Positions 34,993 to 60,458 of a stretch of 64,000 nucleotides of DNA are shown in pieces. The stretch comes from Falsirhodobacter deserti (GTDB taxonomy: Bacteria > Pseudomonadota > Alphaproteobacteria > Rhodobacterales > Rhodobacteraceae), in the NCBI RefSeq assembly GCF_004015795.1, contig NZ_ML137218.1:1020311-1084310 (forward strand), read 5' to 3'. The notes below the pieces were generated by a model. The model was not told the origin of the DNA. It did not search any database and saw nothing but the letters and a program-made list of their open reading frames with translations. The number at the start of each line of letters is the position of its first letter. Position 1 is the first letter of the stretch. A program made the position numbers and the translations under genes.

Positions 34993-36090
34993 ATGAAAAC
35001 CGTATCCGTCGCCCTTGGTGCGCGCAGCTATGACGTACGGATCGGACAAGGGCTGATCGCCGGCGCTGCCGAACAGATCAAGCCCCTGCTGCGCCGCCCG
35101 CGCATCGTTGTCATCACCGATGAGAATGTCGCCGGGACGCAGCTTCCGGCACTTCAGGCATCGCTTGAGGCTGAAGGCATTGCGGTGGAAGCGCTGATCC
35201 TGCCCGCGGGCGAGGGCACAAAGGGCTGGCCGCAGTTCACCCGCACTGTCGAATGGCTGCTGGACCGGAAGGTGGAGCGTCGGGATATCGTCATCGCGCT
35301 TGGCGGCGGCGTGATCGGCGATCTGGCGGGCTTTGCCTCGGCCGTTCTGCGGCGCGGGGTGCGCTTCGTGCAGATCCCGACCTCGCTTCTGGCGATGGTG
35401 GACAGTTCTGTCGGCGGCAAGACGGGCATCAACACGGCGCAGGGCAAGAACCTTGTGGGGGCGTTCCATCAGCCGTCCCTTGTGCTGGCCGATATCTGGG
35501 CGCTTGCAACCCTGCCAGAGCGGGAATTTCTGGCCGGCTATGGCGAGGTTGTGAAATACGGGCTTCTGGGCGATGCGACGTTCTTTGAATGGCTTGAAAA
35601 GAACGCACCCGCAATGGCCGAAGGCGATGATGCCCTGCGGCTGGAGGCTGTTGCCCATTCCGTTGCCATGAAAGCCGCCATCGTCGAACGTGATGAAACC
35701 GAGGAGGGGGAGCGCGCGCTCCTCAATCTTGGTCATACCTTCTGTCATGCGCTGGAAAAGGCGACCGGATATTCGGACCGGCTGTTGCACGGCGAAGGCG
35801 TGGCGATCGGCTGCCTCATGGCGATGGAGCTGAGCCGGAAGCTGAACCTCGTGCCGCAAGAAGCGCCGTCACGCCTTGCTGCGCATCTGCGCGGGATGGG
35901 AATGAAAACAACCCTTCAGGACATTCCCGGGGGGCTGCCCGACGCTGCGGCGCTGCTGCACCTGATGGGGCAGGACAAGAAGGTTCAGGATGGCCAGCTG
36001 CGCTTCATCCTGATGAAGGATATCGGCGACGCCTTCATCGCCGATGATGTGCCATCGGATCTGGTGATCGAGGTTCTTGAAGGCCGCTGA
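34993..36090 (+). CDS. aroB: 3-dehydroquinate synthase
   Basis: The 365-residue enzyme has the NAD site GGGVIGDLAGFASAVLRRGV, the PTSLLAMVDSSVGGKTGIN block near 130, and metal ligands in E..KYG and NLGHTFCHALEK, the latter two around 185-250, plus the GEGVAIG histidine region. It converts DAHP to 3-dehydroquinate in the shikimate pathway. A GAGTGAG site precedes the ATG, and aroK ends 1 bp upstream. A hairpin covers its stop. Confidence 0.96.
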   Translation: MKTVSVALGARSYDVRIGQGLIAGAAEQIKPLLRRPRIVVITDENVAGTQLPALQASLEAEGIAVEALILPAGEGTKGWPQFTRTVEWLLDRKVERRDIVIALGGGVIGDLAGFASAVLRRGVRFVQIPTSLLAMVDSSVGGKTGINTAQGKNLVGAFHQPSLVLADIWALATLPEREFLAGYGEVVKYGLLGDATFFEWLEKNAPAMAEGDDALRLEAVAHSVAMKAAIVERDETEEGERALLNLGHTFCHALEKATGYSDRLLHGEGVAIGCLMAMELSRKLNLVPQEAPSRLAAHLRGMGMKTTLQDIPGGLPDAAALLHLMGQDKKVQDGQLRFILMKDIGDAFIADDVPSDLVIEVLEGR

Positions 36091-36100
36091 GGCGGCCTTC
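36079..36100. terminator. Hairpin spanning the aroB stop and the convergent reductase stop
   Basis: GAAGGCCGC and GCGGCCTTC form a perfect 9 bp stem with a 4 nt loop (TGAG). The aroB stop TGA lies in the loop, and the first bases of the reductase stop are at its right edge. Weak T tract. Confidence 0.6.
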
Positions 36101-37322
36101 AATGTGCAACCGGTGCCGCGGTCTTCGCAGCCTGACGCAGATCATAATCGCAGGCTGCCAGTACAGCTGACGGGGTGGCGATCAGGCGGCGCGCCGACAT
36201 GTGGATGGCAGGGGCGTTGATCGTTTCCACCGCCGCAAGGCATCCTTCCTTGAACAGCAGAATGACAGGCTCTCCCGTTGGTTGGGGAAGGACGATGCAG
36301 TCATCGGCATCGGTCGCAAGTCCCGCGATCTGCAACTTGTGCTTGCCCTGGTCGGACCAGAACCACGGAACCGAGGCATAGGGCTGCGGCGCGGGTCTCA
36401 TCAGCCGGCGGGCAATGTGACGGGCGTGATCCACGGCTGCCTGAACGGATTCCAGCCTGACATGCCGACCAAGCGGGCCCGGGAATGCCGCAACATCCCC
36501 AAGGGCGGAAATGGCCGGATCATCCGTCAGAAGCGATCCGTCCACCACGATGCCGTTCCGGCAGGTCAGCCCCGCCTCGGCAGCCAATTCGACATTGGGG
36601 CGAACGCCGGTTGCGATCAGTACAAGATCGCCCGCAACCTCCCGCCCATCGGCGAGGGTGATGCCCGCGGCATTTCCATCCGCATCCGTCATCACGGCGG
36701 CGGCCATCGTGCCCAGCAAGATTTCAGTCCCCATCGACCAGTGAAGCTTCAGGAACAGGTCCGACATCTGCGGCGACACCGCTCGCGCCATCAGCCGGGG
36801 CGCGGCCTCGATCACTGTTACGCTAACATTCGCGGCACGGGCCATCGCGGCGAATTCCAGCCCGATGAACCCGCCGCCCACCACCACGGCGTGGCGGGTG
36901 TGCGCAAGCCGGCGGCGGATGCTTTCGGCATCGGCAAGCGTCCGAAGCTCTGCCACCCCCGGCGCATCAAGGTTGGGCAGGGGCGGGCGGAAGTTGCGTG
37001 CCCCCGTCGCAAGGATCAGGTGGTCATAGCCGTGGCGGGCGCCATCTTCCGTCTCCACCTCTTGCGCGGTGCGGTCGATGCGTGCGGCGCGGGTGCCATC
37101 GCGCAGGATGATCGACGACCGTTCATAGAAGGCGGCAGGCTTCAGCAGAAGCGCATCGGCATCGCCGCTGGCCATATAGGCCTTGGAAAGCGGCGGGCGC
37201 TGGTAGGGCAAGCCCGGCTCGTCCCCGATCATGAGGATTTCCCCCGCGAACCCTTCCTGACGCAGGCTTGTTGCGGCCTGTTGCCCGCCTTGGCCGGTTC
37301 CGATGATGACAATGCGCTGCAT
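36099..37322 (-). CDS. NAD(P)H:ferredoxin reductase of the P450 system (putidaredoxin/palustrisredoxin reductase type)
   Basis: The 407-residue FAD protein has an N-terminal FAD motif IVIIGTGQGGQQAA (GxGxxG) near residue 4, LPYQRPPLSKAYM near 44, an NAD motif VVVGGGFIGLEFA near 144 and the FAD-binding SALGDVA.F near 270. The C-terminal domain fits the putidaredoxin-reductase family. It passes electrons from NADH to the [2Fe-2S] ferredoxin encoded 10 bp upstream. GGAG 8 nt before the ATG at 37322 selects the start. It is the last gene of the ten-gene aromatic-uptake/P450 run. Confidence 0.93.
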   Translation of the reverse strand: MQRIVIIGTGQGGQQAATSLRQEGFAGEILMIGDEPGLPYQRPPLSKAYMASGDADALLLKPAAFYERSSIILRDGTRAARIDRTAQEVETEDGARHGYDHLILATGARNFRPPLPNLDAPGVAELRTLADAESIRRRLAHTRHAVVVGGGFIGLEFAAMARAANVSVTVIEAAPRLMARAVSPQMSDLFLKLHWSMGTEILLGTMAAAVMTDADGNAAGITLADGREVAGDLVLIATGVRPNVELAAEAGLTCRNGIVVDGSLLTDDPAISALGDVAAFPGPLGRHVRLESVQAAVDHARHIARRLMRPAPQPYASVPWFWSDQGKHKLQIAGLATDADDCIVLPQPTGEPVILLFKEGCLAAVETINAPAIHMSARRLIATPSAVLAACDYDLRQAAKTAAPVAH

Positions 37323-37332
37323 GTCCGCTCCT

Positions 37333-37653
37333 TCAAAGCTGGGATTCGGGCAGGTGGATGACGACACCCTCCAGTTCGGCGCTCATCCTGATTTGGCAGG
37401 ACAGCCTGCTGGTCGGTCGCACTTCCGAGGCGGCGCAATCCAGCAGATCGCTTTCCCCATCCTCCTGCTGGCCGGTGGCGTCGGCCCATGCCTCATCGAC
37501 ATAGCAGTGGCAGGTCGCGCACATCATCGATCCCCCACATTCGCCGATGATCCCGTCCACGTCGTTGCGCACGGCCGCACGCATGATGCTCTCGCCTTCG
37601 GCCGCGTCCACGGCAGTTTCGGTGCCATCTGCGGCGATGAACGTGATTTTCAT
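37333..37653 (-). CDS. [2Fe-2S] ferredoxin (putidaredoxin/palustrisredoxin type)
   Basis: The 106-residue ferredoxin has ligands Cys39, Cys45, Cys48 (GECGGSMMCATCHCYV) and Cys86 (TSRLSCQI), the CX5CX2CX37C spacing of vertebrate-type/putidaredoxin ferredoxins. It shuttles electrons from the reductase next door to the P450s. It lies 24 bp after the second P450 gene and 10 bp before the reductase gene, the expected set for a class I P450 system. Confidence 0.95.
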   Translation of the reverse strand: MKITFIAADGTETAVDAAEGESIMRAAVRNDVDGIIGECGGSMMCATCHCYVDEAWADATGQQEDGESDLLDCAASEVRPTSRLSCQIRMSAELEGVVIHLPESQL

Positions 37654-37677
37654 GATGCTCTCCTTGCTTTTGCTGGG

Positions 37678-38862
37678 TCAGCCGAGTTTCACGGGCAGGT
37701 TGATCGGGCCGCGGAAACCGAAGCCGCGCCACAGCACGGCCTGCGGATCGGGAAGGGTCATGTTCGGAAACCGTTCGAACAACGCCTCCAGCATGATGGC
37801 GCCGACGGTGCGGCGGGCGATATGGGCGCCGCCGCAGTGATGCGGACCGGACCCGAACGACTGGTGCGGGTTCTTCGTGCGGAACACGTCGAAGCGTTCG
37901 GGATGGTCGAACAGATCCTCGTCATGGTTGGCCGAGGCCTGGATGGTCATGACCGTATCGCCCTTGGGGATGCGGAAGCCGCGGATCTCCACATCCTCCA
38001 GCACGAGGCGCGACGAGGCCTGGATGGGCGCCACCCAGCGCACGCCTTCCTCGAATGCCTGTCCCCACTTGCCGGTCCGCCGGGTTTCCTCCAGCTGTTC
38101 AGGTTCGGTCAGGAAGCCGTAGATGATGGTGGACAGCGCGTCGCGCGGCTCGTTGATGCCGCCGCCGATCGCGATCTTGATGTTGGCCACGATCTGGCTC
38201 ATCGCGATCGGGTTTTCGGAATTGACCATGACCGACAGCGCGGATCGGTCAGGCTGTGCGCGCACCCTTTCCACGGCGCGGGCCAGCATCGCATCCATCT
38301 CGGCATTGGCACGGTCCGAGATTTCGAAAAGGTCGGGCCGCCAGCCGAAATTGCCGGCCCCGTCGATCAGCGCCTGCGACCAGAAGCTCATCTGCGCATC
38401 CGTCGCTTCGGGGATGCCAAGAATATGGGCAAGGATGCGGGCGGCGATGGGTTCGGACAGCAGGACGTGCAGATCCACAACCTCCCCCTTCGGCAGACGG
38501 TCGAGGTATTCGTCAACGAACTGCCGGTATAGCGGGGCCCATACCTCCTGTATCGTCTTGGGCATAAGGGCGGGGGCCATTGCCATGCGTTCGGCCATAT
38601 GTTCCGGGCCGTCCTTGCGCATCAGGGTATGGGCAAGGAAGGCACGCTTCATCGGCGTGTTCGGATCGTTGGAGGAAAAGATCTCCGGCGTGTCCTTGAC
38701 GTATTTGCAGTCCTCCGCCTTTGTCAGGAACGTCCGGCCTACCGATTTCACACGCAGCACGGGCGCTTCGGCCCGCAGCCGCCGATAGATGGGATAGGGC
38801 GCAACGGTCAGATCGTCGATGCTGATCGTGTCGTCCAACGGTGCAAGTCTGTGATCCAGCAT
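37678..38862 (-). CDS. Cytochrome P450 with an atypical I-helix
   Basis: The 394-residue soluble P450 has the K-helix EGVR (272-275) and haem-binding FGSGPHHCGG with the thiolate Cys343. The I-helix reads GGGINEPRD (233-241), so the usual acid-alcohol pair (E/D-T) is E-P, with no threonine beside the acid. I cannot assign a CYP family. The gene lies 10 bp after the CYP199A-like P450 and 24 bp before the ferredoxin and so shares their promoter and probably their electron supply. Substrate unknown; an aromatic or related acid is inferred from context. Confidence 0.93.
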   Translation of the reverse strand: MLDHRLAPLDDTISIDDLTVAPYPIYRRLRAEAPVLRVKSVGRTFLTKAEDCKYVKDTPEIFSSNDPNTPMKRAFLAHTLMRKDGPEHMAERMAMAPALMPKTIQEVWAPLYRQFVDEYLDRLPKGEVVDLHVLLSEPIAARILAHILGIPEATDAQMSFWSQALIDGAGNFGWRPDLFEISDRANAEMDAMLARAVERVRAQPDRSALSVMVNSENPIAMSQIVANIKIAIGGGINEPRDALSTIIYGFLTEPEQLEETRRTGKWGQAFEEGVRWVAPIQASSRLVLEDVEIRGFRIPKGDTVMTIQASANHDEDLFDHPERFDVFRTKNPHQSFGSGPHHCGGAHIARRTVGAIMLEALFERFPNMTLPDPQAVLWRGFGFRGPINLPVKLG

Positions 38863-38872
38863 GGCGGTATCC

Positions 38873-40063
38873 TCAGATCAGTCGCATGGGCAGGGAGGCC
38901 AGTCCCCGCAGTGTATTGTTGTAGGAACGGACAGGATCGCCCGTGATTTCCAGCCGCGTCACGTGGCGGGCCAGTGCATGCAGCACGGCCTCCCCCTCCA
39001 GCCGCGCCAGAAGCTGGCCGACGCACATGTGGATGCCTGCGCCAAAGCCCACATGTCCGCTGGTTTTGCGGGTGATGTCATAATCATCGGGCCGGTCCCA
39101 TCGGCGCGGGTCGCGATTGGCCGCGGCAAGGAACATCAGCACCTTCGCACCTTCGGGAATGGCGGCGCCGCCCAGTTCCGCGTCGCAGGTCGTGGTGCGG
39201 AAGAAGGTCTGCACCGGGCTTTCGAAACGCACCGCCTCCTCGAACGCGTTGCGGGCAAGGGACGGATCGGCACGAAGCGCGGCGAACTGGTCGGGAAAGC
39301 GACCAAGGCAGTAGAGTGCAGCGCCGATGCCGTTCACCGTCGTGTCGATGCCCGCTGTCAGAAGGGAACGGACAAGCAGCGTTGCTTCGTCGCCCGTCAC
39401 CTCGCCCGTGACGGCAGCGGCATGGACGCGCGCGCCCAACCCGTCCGGCGACAGGTTTTCCCGGCGGCATTGCTCGTTGACCCATGCGATATGGGGGGCG
39501 GCCCGTTCCATCGCCGTGCGGCGCAGCTCGTTATCAGGGCCGAAGGCGTTGAAGGCCAGGCCCGCATAGGGAAGCAGATGCTCTCGCCCCTCGTGCCGCA
39601 GGCCGATCCGGTCAGGAAACACCGACAGGGGGAAGGCCTGCGCCAGATCCGCCACCCCGTCGATCTCCCTCCCGACAAGGCTGCGGATCAGCCTGTCTGC
39701 GGCCTCCATGAAGCCGTCGCGCAGATCCCGCATCGTGACGGGGGACAGAACGCGGGCCAGCACCTTGCGGGCGCGGTCATGTTCCGGCGGATCGGTTTCC
39801 AGCACGAGGCTGGGCGGACGCCAAGGCTTTTCGCGGCTGAAATCCTGCAGGCCCACCCCGCGCGAGGAGCAGAAGGTGCGCCAGTCGTTCAGAACGTGAT
39901 GCACCTCGTCATAGCGGGCGACACCATAGACGCCGTAGCGTTCGATCCAGACGACAGGGCCGGCCTGCCGCAGCCGTTCATGTTCGGGATAGGGGTTGTC
40001 GAAAAAGGCGGTGCCGAACGGGTCCAGATCGGAGGGCGGGATCGGGGGAAGATCAAGGCTCAT
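38873..40063 (-). CDS. Cytochrome P450, CYP199A-like (4-methoxybenzoate O-demethylase type)
   Basis: The 396-residue P450 has I-helix AGIDTT (237-242), K-helix EAVR (276-279) and haem-binding FGAGIHMCVG with Cys347. Long stretches such as GVGLQDFSREKPWRPPS, LLPYAGLAFNAFGP and FEEAVRFESPVQTFFRTTT are very close to what I recall of CYP199A2/A4 of Rhodopseudomonas palustris, which oxidise para-substituted benzoates and O-demethylate 4-methoxybenzoate. Family-level assignment is from memory and needs alignment. It overlaps livF by 4 bp, tying it to the transporter genes. Confidence 0.93.
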   Translation of the reverse strand: MSLDLPPIPPSDLDPFGTAFFDNPYPEHERLRQAGPVVWIERYGVYGVARYDEVHHVLNDWRTFCSSRGVGLQDFSREKPWRPPSLVLETDPPEHDRARKVLARVLSPVTMRDLRDGFMEAADRLIRSLVGREIDGVADLAQAFPLSVFPDRIGLRHEGREHLLPYAGLAFNAFGPDNELRRTAMERAAPHIAWVNEQCRRENLSPDGLGARVHAAAVTGEVTGDEATLLVRSLLTAGIDTTVNGIGAALYCLGRFPDQFAALRADPSLARNAFEEAVRFESPVQTFFRTTTCDAELGGAAIPEGAKVLMFLAAANRDPRRWDRPDDYDITRKTSGHVGFGAGIHMCVGQLLARLEGEAVLHALARHVTRLEITGDPVRSYNNTLRGLASLPMRLI

Positions 40064-40779
40064 GCGGCGGCTCCTTTCGCGATGGCGCCGAGGTGTTGTT
40101 CCAGCGGGCGCGGGTCGGCCAGCAGGCTGGCACTGGCGGCGTCATGGACCACCTCGCCCCGATCAAGGATGATGGCGCGGTCGGTCACCTTCAGGATCTT
40201 GCGGGCGTGCTGCTCGACGATGATCGTGGCGATCCCTTCTTCGCGGATGATCCTGCGGATCTGCGCCAGAAGCTGTTCGACGATGATCGGGGCCAGCCCC
40301 TCGGTCGGTTCGTCCAGCAGAAGGATGCGCGGGTTCAGCATCAGGGCACGCCCGATGGCCAGCATCTGCTGTTCGCCCCCCGAAAGCTGGCTGCCCATGT
40401 TGGTGCGGCGTTCCTCCAGCCGCGGAAACATCTCGTAGACGCGGCGCAGCGTGCAGGGGCCGGGACGGGCGGTGGCGGTCAGGTTCTCCTCCACGGTGAG
40501 GGACCGGAAGATGTCGCGCTGCTGGGGCACCCAGCCGATGCCGGCGGCCGCGCGCCCTTCGGGCGACAGGGCGCTGATGTCGCGCCCGTCCACCGCCAGC
40601 CGGCCGCCGAAGCGGCGGGTGACGCCGATGATGCTGTCCAGCAGCGTCGTCTTGCCCACGCCGTTGCGGCCCAGCACGGCCAGCGCCTCGCCGCTGGCAA
40701 TCCGCAGCGACAGGTCTGGGATCACCACCGCCTCGCCATAACCGGCACGCAGGTTCTCGATCGTCAGAAGATCAGGCAT
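40060..40779 (-). CDS. livF: Branched-chain-amino-acid-type ABC transporter ATPase LivF
   Basis: The 239-residue ATPase has Walker A GRNGVGKTT near 37, the Q-loop VPQQRDIF near 87, the signature LSGGEQQMLAIGRAL near 133 and Walker B ILLLDEPTEGLAP near 155, ending in the short LivF-type tail. The ATG at 40779 lies 8 bp inside the livG end. In this setting the importer likely takes up an aromatic acid or other carboxylate rather than amino acids, as in known HAAT-family aromatic transporters. Confidence 0.93.
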   Translation of the reverse strand: MPDLLTIENLRAGYGEAVVIPDLSLRIASGEALAVLGRNGVGKTTLLDSIIGVTRRFGGRLAVDGRDISALSPEGRAAAGIGWVPQQRDIFRSLTVEENLTATARPGPCTLRRVYEMFPRLEERRTNMGSQLSGGEQQMLAIGRALMLNPRILLLDEPTEGLAPIIVEQLLAQIRRIIREEGIATIIVEQHARKILKVTDRAIILDRGEVVHDAASASLLADPRPLEQHLGAIAKGAAA

Positions 40780-41524
40780 GTTCCTCGCTCCCCAGGTAAA
40801 CCTGCTGCACGCTGGGATCGGACATGATCTGCTGCGGGCTGCCTTCGGCGAAATGCGCACCGTTAACCAGAACGGTGATCCGGTCCGCGAAAGAAAAGAC
40901 CAGGTCCATGTCGTGTTCGATCAGCAGGATCGACACGTCGCGCGGCAGTTCGGCCAGCGTTTGCAGAAGCTCCGCGCGTTCCGCTTCGGGCACGCCGGCT
41001 GCAGGTTCGTCCAGCAGCAGAACGCGCGGATTGGAGGCCAGCGCCAGCGCAATTTCCAGCAGACGCTGCTTGCCATATGGCAGCAGGTGCGTCGGCTGGT
41101 CCATCACCTCGGTCAGGCGGAAACGGTCGATCAGGCCCGCAATCTCGTTCATGATATCGGCGCGGGTGCCGATGCCGCGCCAGAAATCGCCCCCGCCGCC
41201 CATCCGCTCGGACACGGCGAGGCCGATGCTTTCCACCGGCGTCATGGCTCCGAAAAGCTGGTTGATCTGGAAGGTGCGGCCAAGCCCCATGCGGGCGCGC
41301 TGGATCTGGCTTTTGCGGGTGATGTCGACGCCGTCCAGCAGGATCTGGCCGCCATTCGTGGGCAGAACACCTGTCAGAAGGTTCACGAAGGTGGTCTTCC
41401 CCGCGCCGTTGGGACCGATCAGCGCGTGGCGCGCGCCATGCGCCAGTGTCAGTGAAACCTTGTCGGTGGCCACAAGCCCGCCGAACCGCTTTTCCAGCGC
41501 GATGGTTTGCAAGGCTGCGGTCAT
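40772..41524 (-). CDS. livG: ABC transporter ATPase LivG
   Basis: The 250-residue ATPase shows Walker [17 protein letters not shown] near 38, the LivG-type ITRKSQIQRARMGLGRTFQINQLF block (residues about 66-90), signature LLPYGKQRLLEIALALAS near 147 and Walker B VLLLDEPAAGV near 168, with the C-terminal VLVNGAHFAEGSP tail. It overlaps livM by 4 bp at its start and livF by 8 bp at its end. Confidence 0.93.
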   Translation of the reverse strand: MTAALQTIALEKRFGGLVATDKVSLTLAHGARHALIGPNGAGKTTFVNLLTGVLPTNGGQILLDGVDITRKSQIQRARMGLGRTFQINQLFGAMTPVESIGLAVSERMGGGGDFWRGIGTRADIMNEIAGLIDRFRLTEVMDQPTHLLPYGKQRLLEIALALASNPRVLLLDEPAAGVPEAERAELLQTLAELPRDVSILLIEHDMDLVFSFADRITVLVNGAHFAEGSPQQIMSDPSVQQVYLGSEEHA

Positions 41525-42552
41525 GTCCGGCCCTCCTTGCGGAAGCGGGCCAGCAGGGTGCGGGGCAGGGCGTTCAGGTTCTCGCGCCCGATCAGCACGA
41601 CGACCAGAAGAACAAGGCCCATCCAGAACATCCAGTATTGCGGCGTGATGGCGGAAAACCAGTCCTGAAGCAGCTTGAACCCGATTGCGCCCAGCAGTCC
41701 GCCGTAAAGATAGCCGACGCCTCCCAGAACGAGGATCAGCAGCACATCCGCCGAACGGTGAAAGGCCAGCACGTCAAGCGACACGAACATCGTGGTCTGT
41801 GTCAGAAGCGCCCCGGCAGCGCCGGCTATCAAAGCCGAAAAGGCATAAAGCCCCAGGATGCGCCGCCCCACCGGGATGCCCATGCTGCGGGCGCGCAGCG
41901 GGTTGTCGCGGATCGCGCGCAGCGACAGCCCATAGGGCGAGGTCACGACGCGCCGCGCAATAAGAAAGAAGGCAAAGGTGACGATCAGGCAATAGGCATA
42001 GCCGGTGGTGCCGAAAAGATCGAATTCGAACCGGCCCAGCAGCGGGTCGATCATCACGCCCGTCAGCCCGTCGGCGCCGCCTGTCAGCCACGCCGCTTGG
42101 TTTGCGCCTTCAAGCACCAGCATCGCCACGCCCAGCGTCACCATCAGCCGCGTCAGGTCCGAAGCGCGCAGAAGCAGAAGCGGCCCCGTCGCCAGTCCCA
42201 GCAGCCCTGCCGCCAGCGCCGCAAGAACAAGGCCGGTCAGTGGCTCCCCCGTCAGGTGGATGGAGGTGAGGCCCGCGACATAGGCCCCCAGCCCGAAGAA
42301 CGCGCCATGCCCCAGCGACACCACACCGGCATAGCCGATGATCAGGTCCAGAGAGAGGGCGAAGAGCCCGAGGATCGCGATCTCGGACAGCAGCAGGTGG
42401 CGGTCCGGCAGGAAGAAAAAGCTTGCGGCCACGATCAGCCAGAAGACGAATTCTGCAGGCTTCCAGCGGCCCCGGCGCAAAAGGTCGCGGCTGACCCGTT
42501 CATTCGGACGGGGGGAGGCAAGAAGAGGCGACAGGCTTGTATCGGTCATCAT
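41521..42552 (-). CDS. livM: ABC transporter permease LivM
   Basis: The 343-residue permease has about ten hydrophobic spans and LivM features, LIIGYAGVVSLGHGAFFGLGAY near 68, SPYGLSLRAIRDNPLRARSMGI near 205 (coupling region) and LGGVGYLYGGLLGAIG near 295. I place the start at the second ATG (42552), six bases after AAGG; ATGs at 42558 and 42549 are possible. It follows livH by 9 bp. Confidence 0.92.
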   Translation of the reverse strand: MMTDTSLSPLLASPRPNERVSRDLLRRGRWKPAEFVFWLIVAASFFFLPDRHLLLSEIAILGLFALSLDLIIGYAGVVSLGHGAFFGLGAYVAGLTSIHLTGEPLTGLVLAALAAGLLGLATGPLLLLRASDLTRLMVTLGVAMLVLEGANQAAWLTGGADGLTGVMIDPLLGRFEFDLFGTTGYAYCLIVTFAFFLIARRVVTSPYGLSLRAIRDNPLRARSMGIPVGRRILGLYAFSALIAGAAGALLTQTTMFVSLDVLAFHRSADVLLILVLGGVGYLYGGLLGAIGFKLLQDWFSAITPQYWMFWMGLVLLVVVLIGRENLNALPRTLLARFRKEGRT

Positions 42553-42561
42553 TGGCATCCT

Positions 42562-43416
42562 TTAGCGTGCGGGGGCGATCAGGCCCTGCGGGCGCAGGAT
42601 CAGAAGGACGATCATCAGCAGATAGATGAGGAAGGCCCCAAGCTCGGGGACGTAGTACTTGCCCGCCACATCGGCGGTTCCGATGATCAGGGCGGCAAGG
42701 AAGGGGCCGGTCAGGCTGGCCGTGCCGCCGATGGTCACCACGATCAGCACGTAAACGAGGATCTTCAGCGGGAAGGTGGGATCAAGGCCCATGATCTCGA
42801 TCCCCAGCGCCCCGCCGAGGCCGGCAAGGCCAGATCCGGTGGCAAATGTCAGCGCGAAGATGCGGTTCACGTTGATGCCAAGGCCCCGCGCCGCCCGCTG
42901 ATCATCGACCGAGGCGCGAAGCCGTGCGCCGAACCGGGTTCCGGCCAAAACCATCTGAAGCACGATGACCAGCGCGGCACATACGACGATCAGGAACGCG
43001 CGGTATCGACCGATACCCACACCCAGAACCTCGAACCGGCCCTGAAGCCACGGGGGCAGGGTGATCAGCATCTGGCTGGACCCAAGAAGCCAATCCGCCC
43101 CCGCGATGGACATGAAGACCAGCGCGATGGAAAACAGCACGTGGTCCAGGTGGCTGCGCCGGTACATCCGCACGTAAAGCGTGCGTTCCGCCACCAATCC
43201 CACCAGCGCGGGGATCAGGAAGGCGAAGGGCAGAGTCAGCAGGAACGGAACGCCCAGCCGGTTCATCGCCAAGGCGGTGACATAGCCGCCAATCATGGCA
43301 AATGCACCATGGGCAAGGTTCACGAAGTTCATCAGCCCCAGCGTCACCGCCAGCCCAAGGGCCATGACGAAGAGCAGCATTCCATAGGCGATCCCGTCGA
43401 TCAGGATGGTCAGCAT
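42562..43416 (-). CDS. livH: ABC transporter permease LivH
   Basis: The 284-residue permease starts MLTILIDGIAYGMLLFVMALGL and carries the LivH blocks LGLMNFVNLAHGAFAMIGGY, GTRFGARLRASVDDQRAARGLGINV (coupling region) and GGTASLTGPFLAALIIG. CGGGA lies 6 nt before the ATG at 43416; an ATG 15 bp upstream is also possible. It forms the channel with LivM. Confidence 0.92.
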   Translation of the reverse strand: MLTILIDGIAYGMLLFVMALGLAVTLGLMNFVNLAHGAFAMIGGYVTALAMNRLGVPFLLTLPFAFLIPALVGLVAERTLYVRMYRRSHLDHVLFSIALVFMSIAGADWLLGSSQMLITLPPWLQGRFEVLGVGIGRYRAFLIVVCAALVIVLQMVLAGTRFGARLRASVDDQRAARGLGINVNRIFALTFATGSGLAGLGGALGIEIMGLDPTFPLKILVYVLIVVTIGGTASLTGPFLAALIIGTADVAGKYYVPELGAFLIYLLMIVLLILRPQGLIAPAR

Positions 43417-43495
43417 GGTGTTTCCCGGCATGAGGGTTCCGGCCCCGCGCCGAAGGTCCGGCGCAGGTCACTGTCCGTTGCGATGGCTGGGGTGG

Positions 43496-44671
43496 TTACG
43501 ATCCGGTCTTGCCGGGATCCTTCACCGCCTCAAACGTCTGAAACTCGATATTCCAGAGCTGGTCGTCCTGACGTTCCACCCGTCGCAGATAGACGTTCTG
43601 CACGATGTCGCGGGTTTCGGGGTCGATGCTGACAGGGCCGCGGGGGCTTTCCCATGACATGCCCTTCATCGCGTCCATCATCGCCTCGCCGCCCTCGCCG
43701 CCGGTTTCCTCCAGTGCGGCATAGATCAGGTGCATCCCGTCATAGCCGCCAACGGCCATGAAGTTCGGGCGCATCCCGTTCGTCGCTTCCTGGAACGCCT
43801 GCACGAATTCGTCGTTTTTGGCGCTGTCATGCGCAGCAGAATAGTGGAAGCCCGTGATGGCGGCCAAAGCCGGATCGCCCATGCCGTTCAGGATGTCGTC
43901 ATCCGTGATCCCGCCATCGGCCAGCAGCTTGATGCCGGATTTATCAAGCCCCCGTTCGACATATTGCTTCATGAACTGGGCGCCCACGCCCGAAGGCACG
44001 AAGACGAAGATCGCGTCGGGCTGCGCGTCGGCCACCTTTTGGAGGAAGGGGGAGAAGTCAGGGTTTTGCAGCGGGACGCGCAAGGTGTCCGTCACCTCGC
44101 CGCCCGCATTGCCGAAGGTGGAAACGAAGGTCTTCTCCGCATCGATGCCGGGGCCATAGTCCGACACGACGGTCACGACCTTGGTCATCCCTTCAGAGGC
44201 GGCCCATTCGGCGATCTTCGAGGTCACCTGCGGTGTGGTATAGCTGGTGCGGACGATGAACGGCGATTGTTCGGTGATCGAGGATGTGGCGGCGGCCATC
44301 ACCACGGTGGGTGTCTGGCCGCGGGTGGAAAGCGGTGCCGTTGCCATTGCCAGCGGCGTCAGGCCGAAGCCGGCCAGTGCGCCGACCTTATCCCGCACGA
44401 TCAGTTCCTGCGCCAGGCGCTTGGTGGTGTCGGCGACACCGGCATCGTCTTTCAGGATAAGCTCGATCTTCTGACCGCCTGCCTCATCCCCGTGCTGGGC
44501 CATGTACAGCCGCGCCGCAGCCTCGATCTGCCGACCGGTCGACGCGAAGGGCCCCGTCATCGGCAGGATCAGCCCGATCTTGAACGTGCCGTCCTGTGCC
44601 AGTGCCGGTACACCCGCGATCGCGGTCGAGAGCCCCAAAGCAGCGCCCATAAGCATGTGTCTTCTTTTCAT
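43496..44671 (-). CDS. livK: ABC transporter substrate-binding protein (LivK/HAAT family)
   Basis: The 391-residue protein has a signal peptide MKRRHMLMGAALGLSTAIAGVPALAQ and a two-lobe Peripla_BP_6 fold: FKIGLILPMTGPFASTGRQIEAAARLY near 30, IVRTSYTTPQVTSKIAEWA near 137 and the C-terminal YAALEETGGEGGEAMMDAMKGM. In place of the amino-acid-binding residues it could bind an aromatic acid; the ligand cannot be told by eye. It lies 54 bp after the regulator gene and 79 bp before livH. Confidence 0.92.
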   Translation of the reverse strand: MKRRHMLMGAALGLSTAIAGVPALAQDGTFKIGLILPMTGPFASTGRQIEAAARLYMAQHGDEAGGQKIELILKDDAGVADTTKRLAQELIVRDKVGALAGFGLTPLAMATAPLSTRGQTPTVVMAAATSSITEQSPFIVRTSYTTPQVTSKIAEWAASEGMTKVVTVVSDYGPGIDAEKTFVSTFGNAGGEVTDTLRVPLQNPDFSPFLQKVADAQPDAIFVFVPSGVGAQFMKQYVERGLDKSGIKLLADGGITDDDILNGMGDPALAAITGFHYSAAHDSAKNDEFVQAFQEATNGMRPNFMAVGGYDGMHLIYAALEETGGEGGEAMMDAMKGMSWESPRGPVSIDPETRDIVQNVYLRRVERQDDQLWNIEFQTFEAVKDPGKTGS

Positions 44672-44725
44672 CGGGTCTCCTCCCCCGTTTTTGGCTGGCG
44701 GCAGCCTCCCCGCTGCCGCTGACTT

Positions 44726-45496
44726 TCACGTCTCGCTGACCTCCTCCTGCGGTTGCAGGATCAGGCTTGCCCCTCGGAACCCTTCGGGCAGGCTGCCCAG
44801 CCCAAGGGCGCGATCCAGATTGCGTTGCGACAGGCGGGCATGTTCGCGCATGATGGCCTCGGCCCGCGTTCCCTGCCGCCCGGCAATGGATTCCAGTACG
44901 GCGCGGTGATGCTCCTGTCCAATCAGCAGATGATCGTGCGCGTCGCGATCATGTTCGTACATCCCGACCAGGGCGCTGGACGACGCGAAGGGGCGATTGT
45001 TTGCCCGCGCGATCTCCTGGCAGAGAAGGGCGCTTCCGGTGGCGGCGGTCAACCCGTCATGGAACTGCGCGTTCAGTCGTTCGTATCGCGGAAGATCGGA
45101 TCGGGCGAAACTGTCCGCATTCAGCAGGGCATGAATCCGGTCAGAGATTTGCACAAGATCCTGCAGGGCCTTCCGGTCGATGCCACGTTCCGCAAGCCAG
45201 CGCGCGGCCAGACCTTCAAGCGTGCCGCGCAATTCGATGGTATCGGCAATCTCGCTTGGAAGAAGGCGGCGGATGGCATAGCCGCCCCCCGGCATCGGCA
45301 TCAGCAACCCTTCATCGGTCAGCCGCTGAAGCGCGGCCCGGATCGGGGTGCGCGACATCGACAGCATCTCGGCCAGTTGCACTTCGGTATAGCGGGTGTC
45401 GGATGTCAGCTGGTTGCCGACGATCATGTCACGCAAGGTCATTGCCGCGCGTGCGGTTTGCGTCTGTCCGTTTCTAATGATGCTGTCATCATTCAT
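44726..45496 (-). CDS. GntR-family (FCD) transcriptional regulator
   Basis: The 256-residue regulator has an N-terminal winged helix (QLAEMLSMSRTPIRAALQRLTDEGLL, about residues 40-70) and a C-terminal FCD ligand-binding domain with metal-site-like residues in YERLNAQFHDGL and HDHLLIGQEHHRAVLESI. FCD regulators usually sense small organic acids. The chosen ATG at 45496 has GGAG 9 nt before it. It is the first gene of the leftward run ending at 36099 and probably controls that operon and itself. Confidence 0.9.
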   Translation of the reverse strand: MNDDSIIRNGQTQTARAAMTLRDMIVGNQLTSDTRYTEVQLAEMLSMSRTPIRAALQRLTDEGLLMPMPGGGYAIRRLLPSEIADTIELRGTLEGLAARWLAERGIDRKALQDLVQISDRIHALLNADSFARSDLPRYERLNAQFHDGLTAATGSALLCQEIARANNRPFASSSALVGMYEHDRDAHDHLLIGQEHHRAVLESIAGRQGTRAEAIMREHARLSQRNLDRALGLGSLPEGFRGASLILQPQEEVSET

Positions 45497-45520
45497 AGCA
45501 GAGCGCTCCTCTGCAGTCAG

Positions 45521-45528
45521 TGTATACA
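45521..45528 (-). promoter_or_regulatory. Candidate GntR operator, site 1
   Basis: TGTATACA, a perfect palindrome, 25 bp upstream of the gntR start. A second TGTATAC lies at 45595-45601. Many FCD regulators bind TTGTATACAA-like sites, so autoregulation is plausible. Confidence 0.5.
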
Positions 45529-45594
45529 CACAAAACGATTCGGTGACATTTTTTTGTCGAACTTTGAAGTTTTCCTGCATTGCGCTCGTCGTAT

Positions 45595-45601
45595 TGTATA
45601 C
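45595..45601 (-). promoter_or_regulatory. Candidate GntR operator, site 2
   Basis: TTGTATACCC contains TGTATAC, the same core as site 1, 74 bp away (about seven helical turns), in the gap between gntR and the divergent lipoprotein gene. Confidence 0.45.
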
Positions 45602-45727
45602 CCACGCCTTTCGGCATATGGGGCTGCGGCGAGGCGATATGCGCGTTGCGTGGATAAGGCTTCAACTTCTTCGGGAAACGGATCAAGAAAGCCGCCGAAG
45701 CTCTGCAGCGAAAAAGGAAGACGCCTC

Positions 45728-46221: not shown

Positions 46222-47205
46222 ATGATCGGCAACTTCAAACATATCGGCATCGCAACCGTTGCCGCGACACTTCTTGCGCAGGGTGCAGCGCATGCGCAGG
46301 ACTGGCCGTCCGAACCGGTCCATGTTTTTGTCGGCTTTCCCGCCGGCTCGTCGCCTGACACCATTGCGCGCCTTGTGGCCGAGCCGCTTTCCCAAGCTTT
46401 GGGTCAGCCCGTCGTGGTCGAAAACAAGCCGGGCGCGGGCGGCGTCATCGGCGTTCAGCAGATGCTTTCGCAGGCGGACACCGGTCACAGCTTCGGCGTT
46501 ACGATCAACGGGCCGCTGACCACATCTCAACGGCTGGTGCCGGATCTGAGCTATGAGACGGCAAGCGACATCGCACCTGTCGCGCTGATCGCGACCAGCC
46601 CGCTTGCGCTGACGGTGCCCGCCGATTTTCCGGCCGATGACGCCGCCGCTTTCATCGAGGAGGCGAAGGCCAATCCCGGCGATATTGCCTACGGTTCAGT
46701 CGGGCAGGGTTCCGGTGCACATCTGACGGCAGAGCTTTTCGCCGACGCCGCGGGGATCGAGCTGTTCCACATCCCGTTCCAAAGCTATGCCGAGGTGACG
46801 ACCTCCATGCTGGCCGGAGAGATCGATGCAGGCTTCATGGCCCCCTCTGCCGCGCTGCCTTTCGTGGAGGCGGGGCAGCTGAAGATGCTTGGCCTTACTT
46901 CGGCAAAGCCGTTCCCGCAGGCACCCGATGTGCCGGTGCTGGCAGGTCAGGCCGGTATTCCGGATGATTTCCGCGCTGAACTGTGGAACGCCTTCATCGC
47001 TCCGGCTGGAACCGATCCCGCGATCATCGAGCGGCTGAACACCGAGATCAACACGATCCTTGCCGATGAGGCGTTGCAGCAGAAACTGCTGGCAACGGGC
47101 TGGAACGTCGCGCCCGGAACGACCGCTGATCTGGCGGCACGGATCGAGGCCGATACCGCCCTTTGGGGCAAGGCCATCGACCTAGTCGAGGCGAAGGACC
47201 AGTAA
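46222..47205 (+). CDS. tctC: Tripartite tricarboxylate transporter substrate-binding protein (TctC/Bug)
   Basis: The 327-residue protein has a signal peptide ending AAHAQ and the Bug fold: WPSEPVHVFVGFPAGSSPD, VVENKPGAGGVIG, GDIAYGSVGQGSGAHLTAELF and VPYRS-like IPFQSYAEVTTSMLAGEIDAGF. It binds a carboxylate in the periplasm and delivers it to TctAB. GGAGGA precedes the ATG. tctB begins 6 bp after it. Confidence 0.92.
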   Translation: MIGNFKHIGIATVAATLLAQGAAHAQDWPSEPVHVFVGFPAGSSPDTIARLVAEPLSQALGQPVVVENKPGAGGVIGVQQMLSQADTGHSFGVTINGPLTTSQRLVPDLSYETASDIAPVALIATSPLALTVPADFPADDAAAFIEEAKANPGDIAYGSVGQGSGAHLTAELFADAAGIELFHIPFQSYAEVTTSMLAGEIDAGFMAPSAALPFVEAGQLKMLGLTSAKPFPQAPDVPVLAGQAGIPDDFRAELWNAFIAPAGTDPAIIERLNTEINTILADEALQQKLLATGWNVAPGTTADLAARIEADTALWGKAIDLVEAKDQ

Positions 47206-47211
47206 GCGTCC

Positions 47212-47655
47212 ATGCAGCGCGATCACGACGACATCATGTGGGGCGCGATCCTTGCCCTGCTGGGGCTTGGGGTCGCGGCCTATGCCGCTGCCTGCTATGA
47301 CATGGGCAGCCTGAGGCGGATGGGGCCGGGCTTCTTCCCGGTCATGCTGGGGATCGTTCTTGCGGTTCTGGGCGCGGCCATCGCCGTTCCCGCATGGTGG
47401 CGCAAGGGCGTCGCGCGTCCTCTTTACTGGCGGGAGGCATTGGGCGTGACCGCTTCGCTGATGCTGTTCAGCGTGCTGATGGGAACGGCGGGGATCGTGG
47501 TGGCGACCGTGGTCACGACGCTGGTGGCCAGTTCCGTCGCGCCGCGTGGCGGCACCCTGTGGCGCGTGGTTCTGGCCGTTGTGGTGGCTGCGCTGACATG
47601 GCTGATCTTCATCGCCGGCCTTTCCATGTCGATCCCCGTCTGGCCGTGGAGCTGA
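47212..47655 (+). CDS. tctB: Tripartite tricarboxylate transporter small membrane subunit TctB
   Basis: The 147-residue protein has four hydrophobic segments and the start pattern MGSLRRMGPGFFPVMLGIVLAVLG, typical of TctB (MGPGxFP). It is the small subunit of the TctAB channel. It is placed between tctC (6 bp) and tctA (1 bp). Confidence 0.9.
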   Translation: MQRDHDDIMWGAILALLGLGVAAYAAACYDMGSLRRMGPGFFPVMLGIVLAVLGAAIAVPAWWRKGVARPLYWREALGVTASLMLFSVLMGTAGIVVATVVTTLVASSVAPRGGTLWRVVLAVVVAALTWLIFIAGLSMSIPVWPWS

Positions 47656-47656
47656 A

Positions 47657-49141
47657 ATGACAACGCTTGAAGGCCTTGCGCACGGGCTGTTGGTTGCGCT
47701 GCAACCTTCGATCCTGATCTACAGCCTGCTGGGCGCTGTTCTGGGCACGCTGGTGGGCGTTCTGCCGGGCATCGGGGCGATGGCGGCAATCACGCTGCTT
47801 CTGCCGATCACCTACCACATTTCGTCCGAGGCGGCGCTGGTCATGCTGGCGGGGGTTTATTACGGCGCGCAATATGGCGGGGCCGTGGCTTCGATCCTGC
47901 TGCGGCTGCCCGGAACCCCGCAATCGGCAGTTACCACGCTTGATGGTTATCCGATGGCGCAGCAGGGCAGGGCAGGCGTTGCGCTGTTTACCTCGATGGT
48001 GTCGTCCTTCGCAGGGGCGATGCTGGGCATTCTGATCCTTGTGGTGCTTTCCGGCTGGCTGGCTGGAATGGCAACATCATTCGGCGCGGCCGATTATGCG
48101 GCGATGATGGTCATGGGGCTGGTCGCAGCCTCGACCATCGGCAACAGCCGCCCCGTGAAAAGCCTTGCGATGGTCGTGGTGGGGCTGATCGCAGGCTGCA
48201 TCGGCACCGACGTGAATTCGGGCGTGCAGCGGCTGACCTTCGGGCAAACCCAACTTCTTGACGGCATCAACCTTGTCGCGCTGGCAATGGGCCTGTTCGG
48301 CGTGGCTGAGGTGATCGCCAATATACAAGGGGCGGATCGCCACGGCCCACCCAGCCGTGTAAGTTTGCGCCAGTTGATCCCGACCCGCGACGATGTGCGC
48401 CGGATGGTTGGCCCGATCCTGCGCGGCACGGGCCTTGGCGGTCTGTTCGGCGCCTTGCCCGGAACCGGTTCCACGATCTCGTCCTTCCTCGCCTATGGGT
48501 TGGAGCGGCGGATCGCACGAAAGCCCGAACGCTTCGGCAATGGGGCGATCGAGGGGGTCGCAGCGCCGGAATCCGCTAACAATTCCGCCTCCATCACCGC
48601 TTTCGTGCCGACGCTGACGCTGGGCATTCCAGGCGATCCCATCATGGCCCTGATGTTGGGCGCGCTGGTGATCCACGGCATCCAGCCGGGACCAACGCTG
48701 CTGACAAGCCATCCGGACATGTTCTGGGGCCTCGTGGTCAGCTTCGGTATCGGCAACCTGTTCCTTCTGGTGCTGAACCTGCCGCTGATCGGCATTTGGG
48801 TGTCGATCCTGCGGATCCCGTTTCGCTGGCTGTATCCGGCGATCATCGTGTTCATCTGCCTTGGTGTCTATTCCGTGCGCGGGTCGACCTTCGACATCTT
48901 CATGGTCGGTGGCATCGGCATCACCGGCTATGCCCTGACAAGGGCCGCCTTCAGTCCTGCGCTGCTGCTTCTGGGCTTCGTTCTTGGACCGCTGATCGAG
49001 ACGAACCTGCGCCGTGCCATGCTTGTTTCGCGCGGCGACGCGATGATCTTCCTCGAGCGGCCCGTCGCCTGTGCCTTCGTTGTCGCGACCGTGTTGCTGC
49101 TGATCTGGCCAGTTGTGAAGCGGATCATCCCCAAGCGCTGA
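47657..49141 (+). CDS. tctA: Tripartite tricarboxylate transporter large membrane subunit TctA
   Basis: The 494-residue permease has about twelve spans and the TctA hallmarks LGTLVGVLPGIGAMAAITLLLP near 37, YYGAQYGGAVASILLRLPGTPQS near 76, and GALPGTGSTISSFLAYGLERR with APESANNSASITAFVPTLTLGIPG. The ligand is a carboxylate of unknown kind. The gene ends 6 bp before the left end of a MITE-like element. A glycerate kinase gene lies beyond on the other strand and hints at a C3-C4 hydroxyacid. Confidence 0.94.
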   Translation: MTTLEGLAHGLLVALQPSILIYSLLGAVLGTLVGVLPGIGAMAAITLLLPITYHISSEAALVMLAGVYYGAQYGGAVASILLRLPGTPQSAVTTLDGYPMAQQGRAGVALFTSMVSSFAGAMLGILILVVLSGWLAGMATSFGAADYAAMMVMGLVAASTIGNSRPVKSLAMVVVGLIAGCIGTDVNSGVQRLTFGQTQLLDGINLVALAMGLFGVAEVIANIQGADRHGPPSRVSLRQLIPTRDDVRRMVGPILRGTGLGGLFGALPGTGSTISSFLAYGLERRIARKPERFGNGAIEGVAAPESANNSASITAFVPTLTLGIPGDPIMALMLGALVIHGIQPGPTLLTSHPDMFWGLVVSFGIGNLFLLVLNLPLIGIWVSILRIPFRWLYPAIIVFICLGVYSVRGSTFDIFMVGGIGITGYALTRAAFSPALLLLGFVLGPLIETNLRRAMLVSRGDAMIFLERPVACAFVVATVLLLIWPVVKRIIPKR

Positions 49142-60402: not shown

Positions 60403-60458
60403 CACCCCCGCCTTGGTCCCCCGACGGTGAATCATGTTCCTCGGAGAAGGCCAAGGAT

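What the first reader, a model, noticed from the sequence alone, without database searches (positions are those of the whole stretch)
36099..45601. Ten-gene leftward operon pairing a solute importer with two P450s and one redox chain
Seen: gntR, livK, livH, livM, livG, livF, P450, P450, [2Fe-2S] ferredoxin and FAD reductase all run on the minus strand, with overlaps of 4-8 bp or gaps of at most about 80 bp. Known: CYP199A enzymes oxidise para-substituted benzoates and use a palustrisredoxin-type ferredoxin and reductase; HAAT-type importers can carry aromatic acids. Inference: a self-contained unit for uptake and O-demethylation (or other oxidation) of a methoxylated aromatic acid, with a second P450 acting on the product or on a different substrate. 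The combination of dedicated importer, two different P450s and one electron supply in one transcript is unusual and may be a new catabolic module.
Basis: partly seen in the sequence, partly recalled or inferred. Interest (0 to 1): 0.75.

Follow-up and report, generated by a model that had tools for sequence, protein, structure and literature searches.

The report
Two-P450 operon for methoxybenzoate uptake, demethylation
Ten neighbouring genes in this bacterium appear to bring methoxylated plant-derived acids into the cell and strip their methyl groups one after the other with two different P450 enzymes sharing one electron supply; the parts are of known kinds, but the searches made here found no description of the combination.

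Summary
Ten minus-strand genes (gntR-livKHMGF-P450-P450-ferredoxin-reductase) overlap or lie at most 64 bp apart. P450-1 is a CYP199A enzyme (69% identical to CYP199A4) with the carboxylate pocket kept, but Ala where CYP199A4 has Val181, a change proposed in PbdA to favour veratrate. P450-2 is 70% identical to the Ti-plasmid P450 that I take to be VirH2, a reported aromatic O-demethylase. LivK is 61% identical to a binding protein crystallised, as I recall, with 4-hydroxybenzoate, vanillate and protocatechuate. GntR is 40% identical to Atu1419, a repressor of vanillate demethylation, and the operon carries Atu1419's operator core: nine of ten operons (window included) have a GTATAC pair spaced about 6, 7 or 8 helical turns. 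The ten-gene order recurs in four other Paracoccus records; elsewhere CYP199 is moved or missing, so P450-2, importer and redox chain look like the core. The genome has pobA and pcaH but no VanA or LigM candidate was found. Best reading: import, then veratrate to vanillate (CYP199A), then vanillate to protocatechuate (VirH2-type P450). Nothing was tested biochemically.

The parts
44726..45496 (-). gntR: FCD (VanR-group) regulator, Atu1419-like
   Evidence: PF07729 FCD and PF00392 GntR; best solved relative 6z74, which is Atu1419; 88 of 220 identical, DNA-contact residues E34 R45 T46 R49 G66 kept
45521..45528 (.). candidate operator 1, TGTATACA, centre 28 bp before the gntR start
   Evidence: GTATAC pairs in 8 of 9 homologous operons
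45595..45602 (.). candidate operator 2, TGTATACC on the + strand, centre 74 bp (7.05 turns) from operator 1
43496..44671 (-). livK: periplasmic solute-binding protein, aromatic-acid type
   Evidence: PF13458; 221 of 364 aligned positions identical to the 4ey3 chain
42562..43431 (-). livH permease (start may be the ATG at 43416)
   Evidence: PF02653
41521..42558 (-). livM permease
   Evidence: PF02653
40772..41524 (-). livG ATPase
   Evidence: PF00005 and PF12399
40060..40779 (-). livF ATPase
   Evidence: PF00005; start from overlap and homologues
38873..40063 (-). P450-1, CYP199A subfamily; predicted 4-O-demethylase of 4-methoxybenzoates, Ala at position 181
37678..38862 (-). P450-2, VirH2-type aromatic O-demethylase; predicted 3-O-demethylase of vanillate
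   Evidence: 70% to the Ti-plasmid P450 taken as VirH2; tree; E-P I-helix motif shared with GcoA
37333..37653 (-). [2Fe-2S] ferredoxin, presumed to serve both P450s
   Evidence: PF00111 Fer2
36099..37322 (-). FAD ferredoxin reductase
   Evidence: PF07992 and PF14759; best solved relative 3fg2, 317 bits
36077..36102 (.). 11-bp perfect inverted repeat (TTGAAGGCCGC-TGAG-GCGGCCTTCAA) across the converging stop codons of the reductase and aroB; terminator candidate without a T run
   Evidence: sequence read; not listed by the consensus scan

Best explanation
An operon for uptake and complete O-demethylation of methoxylated benzoates. LivKHMGF imports a para-oxygenated benzoate (veratrate, vanillate or 4-methoxybenzoate). 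CYP199A removes the 4-methyl group (veratrate to vanillate; 4-methoxybenzoate to 4-hydroxybenzoate). The VirH2-type P450 removes the 3-methyl group (vanillate to protocatechuate). One ferredoxin and one reductase serve both enzymes. Products enter the separately encoded pobA/pca pathway and the methyl groups leave as formaldehyde. The Atu1419-like GntR represses the operon by binding a phased pair of GTATAC-core sites; its inducer may be a C1-folate (5,10-methylene-tetrahydrofolate) made from that formaldehyde. SHOWN by sequence here: gene content and order, family membership, conserved pocket residues and motifs, conserved candidate operators, no VanA or LigM candidate found, pobA and pcaH present. 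INFERRED: substrates, reaction order, shared electron supply, repression and its inducer.
For: CYP199A4 identity 270 of 389; R92 S95 F182 F185 R243 S244 D251 T252 F298 kept. Ala at 181 in 7 of the 8 CYP199s seen in or beside such operons; the eighth (L042, other strand, other lineage), three CYP199s elsewhere and CYP199A4 have Val; PMC11530827 (passages) proposes that Ala at the PbdA equivalent avoids a clash with the 3-methoxy group. P450-2: 273 of 389 to the Ti-plasmid P450; VirH2 is called an O-demethylase, ferulate to caffeate (PMC6683767 passage). P450-2 shares the E-P I-helix motif with GcoA, 'aromatic O-demethylase'. LivK 61% to 4ey3; solute-binding proteins of R. palustris, among them proteins annotated for branched-chain amino acids, bind aromatic acids, and very few of the latter shift with leucine (PMC3223731 passages). 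The same operon without CYP199 follows a pca cluster in Sinirhodobacter; in G014 P450-2 lies one gene from pobA-pcaC-H-G. Own genome: no VanA_C match, only a 371-aa and a 266-aa frame match GCV_T, pobA and pcaH present. GntR and operator core match Atu1419.
Against: No biochemistry. VirH2 is reported on ferulate and other phenolics, so P450-2 may prefer another guaiacyl compound. Of nine P450-2 genomes, three have a strong VanA_C match (G015, G033, G047), three weaker ones (G052, G050, G011), three none (G000, G014, G045), so P450-2 is not simply a VanA replacement; three lack a pcaH match over the cut-off (G011, G015, G050). Only 4 of 80 P450-2 loci hold pob/pca genes, 12 of 80 pob/pca or a feruloyl-CoA-synthetase-like gene. 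Two Atu1419 effector-loop residues (K175, R183) are not conserved. The Ala181 argument is one residue in mostly related sequences, and CYP199A4, with Val, is itself reported to convert veratrate. The CYP199 tree leaves the operon copies and CYP199A4 unresolved. Ligands of 4ey3/4eyg/4eyk are recalled and LivK contact residues were not compared.
Confidence: 0.6

Rival explanations
1. Parallel rather than sequential use: CYP199A handles 4-methoxybenzoates and P450-2 handles an unrelated guaiacyl substrate such as ferulate (to caffeate) or other phenolics, as VirH2 does; they share only transporter and electrons.
For: VirH2 is described on ferulate. P450-2 homologues elsewhere lie near a feruloyl-CoA-synthetase-like gene in 9 of 80 loci (best model PRK12582, below its cut-off). 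Importer operons without CYP199 exist (L044, L128).
Against: LivK's closest solved relative is of the benzoate type (ligands recalled), and PMC3223731 separates benzoate-type from propenoid-type binders. Among operons of the window's type, L044 lies beside pca genes and L039 near pobA, none near the fcs-like gene. Ala181 would suit a 3-methoxy substrate.
Confidence: 0.22
2. Reversed order: P450-2 first removes the 3-methyl group of veratrate to give isovanillate, which CYP199A then converts to protocatechuate.
For: The CYP199A enzyme PbdA demethylates isovanillate (PMC11530827); VanAB can make isovanillate from veratrate (PMC10825196 passage).
Against: Operons without CYP199 (L044, L128, L046) would then stop at isovanillate; CYP199A4 is reported to convert veratrate to vanillate directly.
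Confidence: 0.08
3. Detoxification or signal-quenching module rather than growth pathway, as suggested for VirH2.
For: VirH2 role in detoxifying phenolics.
Against: A dedicated importer is hard to reconcile with detoxification; pobA and pcaH are present.
Confidence: 0.06
4. Chance neighbourhood: the amino-acid-type importer is unrelated to the P450 genes.
For: Automatic names are 'branched-chain amino acid' permease.
Against: Same order in five records with the window; in G045 a parallel cassette livKHMGF-CYP199-Fdx-FdR without P450-2; in Aurantimonas the same nine genes in permuted order.
Confidence: 0.02

Closest known systems
CYP199A4/HaPux/HaPuR of Rhodopseudomonas palustris HaA2 and PbdAB of Rhodococcus jostii RHA1
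   Same: P450-1 is 69% identical to CYP199A4 with the same carboxylate pocket; ferredoxin and reductase supply as for CYP199A4
   Different: Here CYP199A shares an operon with an importer and a second O-demethylase, and has Ala at 181 as reported for PbdA; PbdA works with a single reductase partner, PbdB
VirH2 (PinF2, recalled name) of Agrobacterium Ti plasmids
   Same: P450-2 is 70% identical over 389 residues and shares the GGGINEP motif; both are the second of two tandem P450 genes
   Different: On pTiC58 the pair has no annotated importer, ferredoxin or reductase gene in the 6.2 kb seen (incomplete gene table); its first P450 is only 33% identical to CYP199A here, over 207 residues
GcoAB guaiacol O-demethylase
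   Same: P450-2 aligns full length (about 172 bits) and shares the E-P I-helix motif
   Different: GcoA uses a one-protein reductase (recalled); low similarity; substrates here are predicted to be acids
Atu1419/Atu1420 vanillate module of A. fabrum (PMC7797058)
   Same: Regulator 40% identical, GTATAC-core operators in pairs, control of vanillate O-demethylation
   Different: There the demethylase is tetrahydrofolate-dependent; here it is a P450; pair spacing is 63-86 bp instead of 190
Engineered P. putida with CYP199A4-HaPux-HaPuR plus native VanAB (PMC10825196, passages)
   Same: Veratrate to vanillate to protocatechuate
   Different: Built by engineering with VanAB as second step; here a natural operon with a predicted P450 second step and its own importer

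Membership tests
CYP199A | more than 55% identity to a subfamily member (convention recalled) | tested here: met
   270 of 389 = 69% to CYP199A4
CYP199A | Arg and two Ser binding the carboxylate; Phe185; D251-T252; heme Cys | tested here: met
   R92 S95 S244 F185 D251 T252 C358 conserved; I97V and S247T differ
CYP199A | para-methoxybenzoate O-demethylation | not testable with these tools
   needs enzyme assay
VirH2-type P450 | high identity and common clade with VirH2 | tested here: met
   70%; same family branch in the tree. The Ti-plasmid gene is taken as virH2 because it is the second of two tandem P450 genes and C58 is said to carry virH1 and virH2 (PMC4051167 passage); the record gives no gene name
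VirH2-type P450 | aromatic O-demethylase activity | not testable with these tools
   needs assay
HAAT importer for aromatic acids | five-gene liv set with SBP close to an aromatic-acid SBP | tested here: met
   the ligands of that SBP's structures are recalled
HAAT importer for aromatic acids | ligand-contact residues or binding | not tested
   contact residues of 4ey3 were not available here
Class I P450 redox chain | [2Fe-2S] ferredoxin plus FAD reductase | tested here: met
   PF00111, PF07992 and PF14759
Atu1419-like GntR | FCD fold, DNA-contact residues, GTATAC-core operators | tested here: met
   9 of 10 operon loci have a site pair, L044 has none
Atu1419-like GntR | methylene-THF effector site | tested here: inconclusive
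   R86 Y133 N137 H141 S169 H214 N221 kept, K175 and R183 not; the metal-binding His residues recur in other FCD proteins
Rieske (VanA) or LigM vanillate demethylase in own genome | VanA_C or GCV_T-type demethylase | tested here: not met
   VanA_C 0 matches; two GCV_T matches in frames of 371 and 266 aa, neither the roughly 470 aa expected of LigM (length recalled)

The most novel reading that the evidence does not exclude
A natural two-P450 pathway for complete O-demethylation of dimethoxybenzoates, in which the second enzyme is a catabolic P450 vanillate O-demethylase and the repressor senses the reaction's C1 waste (methylene-tetrahydrofolate from formaldehyde) rather than the aromatic substrate, holding the promoter in a loop between two operators spaced by whole helical turns.
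Probability: 0.25. Interest if true: 0.72.

Novelty: new variant of a known kind. Interest (0 to 1): 0.55.

Why it matters
O-demethylation is described as a rate-limiting step in converting lignin-derived aromatics (PMC11530827, passages), and the veratrate-vanillate-protocatechuate route has been assembled by engineering from CYP199A4 and VanAB (PMC10825196, passages). This operon would offer a natural, portable version with its own importer, one shared electron supply and its own sensor. It also links VirH2, known from plant infection, to catabolic relatives in other bacteria, and makes two questions directly testable: whether P450s serve as vanillate demethylases, and whether a C1-folate can be the signal for P450 O-demethylation.

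Tried and rejected
Automatic names suggested urea or branched-chain amino acid transport; for the four liv proteins scanned (livH was not) the urea and Liv models listed all scored below their cut-offs (best 25 shown for the two ATPases), so those names were not adopted. P450-2 as a cyclodipeptide-, solanimycin- or pentalenolactone-type enzyme was rejected because those models scored far under cut-off. A resolved history of CYP199 was sought and not obtained: one well supported split only, bootstrap not settled. The idea that P450-2 always replaces VanA was rejected (3 of 9 carriers have strong VanA_C matches). A claim that P450-2 relatives generally sit in protocatechuate clusters was rejected: 4 of 80 loci. 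Ala181 as a mark of every operon CYP199 was rejected: L042 has Val.

Literature searches bearing on the module or its parts: (8 papers; CYP1232A24, none; none; 34, 20 listed; VirH2, 12; 2; 2; none; 2), 83 (3). None of the listings showed this operon; the library lacks most subscription journals. Papers seen: passages of PMC4086400, PMC6683767, PMC4051167, PMC6629968, PMC3866890, PMC3223731, PMC11530827, PMC10825196 and PMC7011507; abstract, sections 20, 23, 24, 27 and passages of PMC7797058. The primary VirH2 papers were not read. Structure prediction was not run because full-length sequence matches already placed the proteins in families. Recalled and not from a call: names of PDB entries 6g71 (CYP1232A24), 3fg2 (PuR); ligands of 4ey3/4eyg/4eyk; PinF2; part of the CYP199A4 pocket list (Arg, two Ser and Phe185 are confirmed).
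Full report
WHAT IS THERE. The window lies in a 2.98-Mb, 7-contig genome at C1:1020311-1084310. Ten minus-strand genes run from gntR (45496) to a ferredoxin reductase (36099), with junctions of +54, +64, +3, -4, -8, -4, +10, +24 and +10 bp. Families. A consensus scan listed no promoter-like site on the minus strand and fewer terminator-like sites than shuffles (4 against 6.3), so a single transcript is likely though not shown. The last gene converges on aroB; an 11-bp inverted repeat (36077-36102) spans both stop codons (sequence).

WHERE IT COMES FROM. Of six same-genus genomes none has a close P450-2 or a CYP199 match at E 1e-60. In G002 and G003 aroB is followed directly by the homologue of the window's 61367 gene, and in G006 it lies about 9 kb on, in each case on aroB's strand; in the window that gene is on the other strand, 25 kb away. 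In G004 other window genes follow aroB, and in G001 and G005 none of the window genes matched downstream. The stretch from about 36 to 56 kb therefore looks like a genus-variable insertion with an inversion beside it. Elsewhere the operon is on large plasmids of Paracoccus sp. MA, P. yeei and Haematobacter massiliensis. Locus L044 (Sinirhodobacter ferrireducens) has a P450-2 identical to that of G052, on a contig of the same length, so G052, of the window's family, is probably that species.

P450-1. Best solved relative is CYP199A4 (615 bits); 270 of 389 aligned residues are identical, and R92, S95, L98, F182, F185, R243, S244, A248, D251, T252, F298 and the heme Cys are kept, while I97 is Val and S247 is Thr. 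PMC11530827 (passages) says that the family appears to have evolved to demethylate para-methoxybenzoates, that one Arg and two Ser hold the carboxylate, and that Ala174 of PbdA (Val in CYP199A2 and A4) may let the 3-methoxy group of veratrate fit. The window has Ala there, as do the CYP199s of six other operons (7 of the 8 seen in or beside such operons); the eighth, L042 on the other strand, three CYP199s elsewhere and CYP199A4 have Val, and the distant L124 has Thr. In the tree the seven with Ala and CYP199A4 fall on one side of a strong split and the four others on the other (100/100), so the contrast is not independent of descent. CYP199A4, with Val, is itself reported to convert veratrate.

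P450-2. Best solved relatives are 6g71 (260 bits), then 8u09 and the aromatic O-demethylase GcoA (about 172 bits). All three share an E-P pair in the I helix where P450-1 has D-T. GGGINEP is present in 9 of 9 aligned orthologues, and GGG(I/L)NEPRD in 80 of 80 loci (77 preceded by Ile; the three Agrobacterium/Rhizobium pTi-type loci L071, L072, L075 by Val). In the plasmid collection 166 records match, 118 of them Agrobacterium. The match on pTiC58 is the second of two tandem P450 genes, which I take as virH2 (C58 is said to carry virH1 and virH2; PMC4051167 passage); identity is 273 of 389. VirH2 is described as an O-demethylase turning ferulate into caffeate (PMC6683767 passage) and as acting on several phenolics (PMC4086400 passage). 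In a quick tree of 101 rows the window falls in a group of 11 rows (SH-aLRT 99), all with the HAAT operon (two rows are the same Sinirhodobacter); the Ti-plasmid sequences lie in another branch of the same family.

OPERON VERSIONS. Of the 80 best loci out of 321, 7 have all five liv genes at 59% or more in one run with P450-2 (L039-L044, L046); L081 has five and L082 four more distant liv genes (26-41%) about 5-10 kb downstream; by my count 28 have the ferredoxin beside it. The ten-gene order of the window is found in L039, L040, L126 and L127. CYP199 lies upstream of gntR with a second livK in Haematobacter (L041; also L148), between livK and livH in Amaricoccus macauensis (L043), on the other strand as a 49% relative in A. 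solimangrovi (L042), and is absent beside the operon in Sinirhodobacter (L044) and Rhizobium sp. SSA_523 (L128). In G045 a parallel cassette livKHMGF-CYP199-Fdx-FdR lacks P450-2. Importer, P450 and redox chain thus form a cassette in which either P450 can sit, and the window has both. The earlier core is probably the P450-2 version, because the CYP199-free L044 is outermost in the operon group as drawn (inner fork 85); the root was not tested.

PATHWAY CONTEXT. In Sinirhodobacter the operon follows pcaD, pcaH, pcaG and pcaB (pcaH by model), with a LysR gene, pcaC and an IclR gene read by eye. In G014 P450-2 is one gene from pobA, pcaC, pcaH (models) and pcaG. Paracoccus sp. MA has pcaF and CoA-transferase genes about 5 kb downstream. 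Across the 80 loci, 4 hold pob/pca genes, 9 a feruloyl-CoA-synthetase-like gene, 12 either. Own genome: pobA (644 bits) and pcaH (352 bits) on C2; no VanA_C match; two GCV_T matches, in frames of 371 and 266 aa. So the genome probably uses protocatechuate and 4-hydroxybenzoate, but neither kind of vanillate demethylase looked for was found. Against exclusivity: among the nine P450-2 genomes, G015, G033 and G047 have strong VanA_C matches, G052, G050 and G011 weaker ones, and G000, G014 and G045 none; pcaH over cut-off is found in 6 of the 9 and pobA in 9 of 9.

IMPORTER. LivK matches 4ey3/4eyg/4eyk at 500 bits, 221 of 364 aligned positions identical. Their ligands (4-hydroxybenzoate, vanillate, protocatechuate) are recalled. 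PMC3223731 (passages) reports R. palustris solute-binding proteins that are strongly stabilised by 4-hydroxybenzoate, and that very few of 22 proteins annotated for branched-chain amino acids or amides responded to leucine, isoleucine or valine, several binding aromatic or fatty acids instead.

REGULATION. GntR's best solved relative is 6z74 (156 bits), which is Atu1419 (PMC7797058 section 27). Atu1419 represses genes for the vanillate part of ferulate degradation, binds ATGTATACAT, is a tetramer seen to loop DNA between two sites 190 bp apart, and is proposed to be released by methylene-THF. Identity is 88 of 220; five of five DNA-contact residues and seven of nine effector-site residues checked are kept, K175 and R183 not. 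Upstream of gntR, 9 of 10 operon loci (window included) have at least two GTATAC palindromes, with centres 63, 74 or 84-86 bp apart, that is 6.0, 7.05 and 8.0-8.19 turns at 10.5 bp; L039 and L126 have a third, 32 and 31 bp off (about 3 turns); L044 has none. TGTATACA occurs twice in the window against 0.03 expected, one of them (62891) with no link to the operon. In the 80 loci there are 20 TGTATACA sites in 1.54 Mb, about 0.7 expected by scaling that figure; 19 of 20 lie within 400 bp of a GntR hit, 13 of 16 loci with a GntR hit have one, and the only one outside is in L089, inside P450-2. Since P450 O-demethylation releases formaldehyde, which combines with tetrahydrofolate (established knowledge), the effector could report the reaction itself; this is inference.

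VERDICT. Components are known kinds; the two-P450 version with importer and this regulator was not seen in the listings, whose library lacks most subscription journals. New variant of a known kind.

Noticed in passing
46222-49141 (+): A tripartite tricarboxylate transporter set tctC-tctB-tctA lies divergent from gntR; none is listed beside the operon in Paracoccus sp. MA (incomplete gene table).
   Followed up: partly
59227-60435 (-) and L119:1521-2729: What looks like the same transposase (DUF772/DDE, 402 aa, same start of sequence) is found in the window and on C2 near the pca cluster.
   Followed up: no
62891-62898: A second perfect TGTATACA palindrome, between tRNA-Gln and the ORF at 63120, with no obvious link to the operon.
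   Followed up: no
L123:441-7642: Parallel cassette livKHMGF-CYP199-Fdx-FdR without P450-2 in genome G045, which also has P450-2-Fdx-FdR followed by what looks like a TRAP binding protein at another locus (L026).
   Followed up: partly
L046:9238-17666: Aurantimonas sp. CSK15Z-1 has gntR-P450-2-Fdx-FdR-livKHMGF: same nine genes, permuted order.
   Followed up: partly
L045:10001-13241: Tandem duplication of P450-2 plus ferredoxin in Aurantimonas sp. VKM B-3413.
   Followed up: no
L082, L084, L087, L108, L110: P450-2 homologues divergent from a GntR gene, with a single TGTATACA between them, each near a DctP-type binding protein (71-93% to that of L087).
   Followed up: partly
L091, L100, L101: TGTATACA sites also flank more distant GntR genes (31-33% to the window's) several kb from P450-2, so the operator core is wider than this operon.
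   Followed up: no
G000:C1:1515212-1515526: A third P450 gene in the genome, not examined.
   Followed up: no
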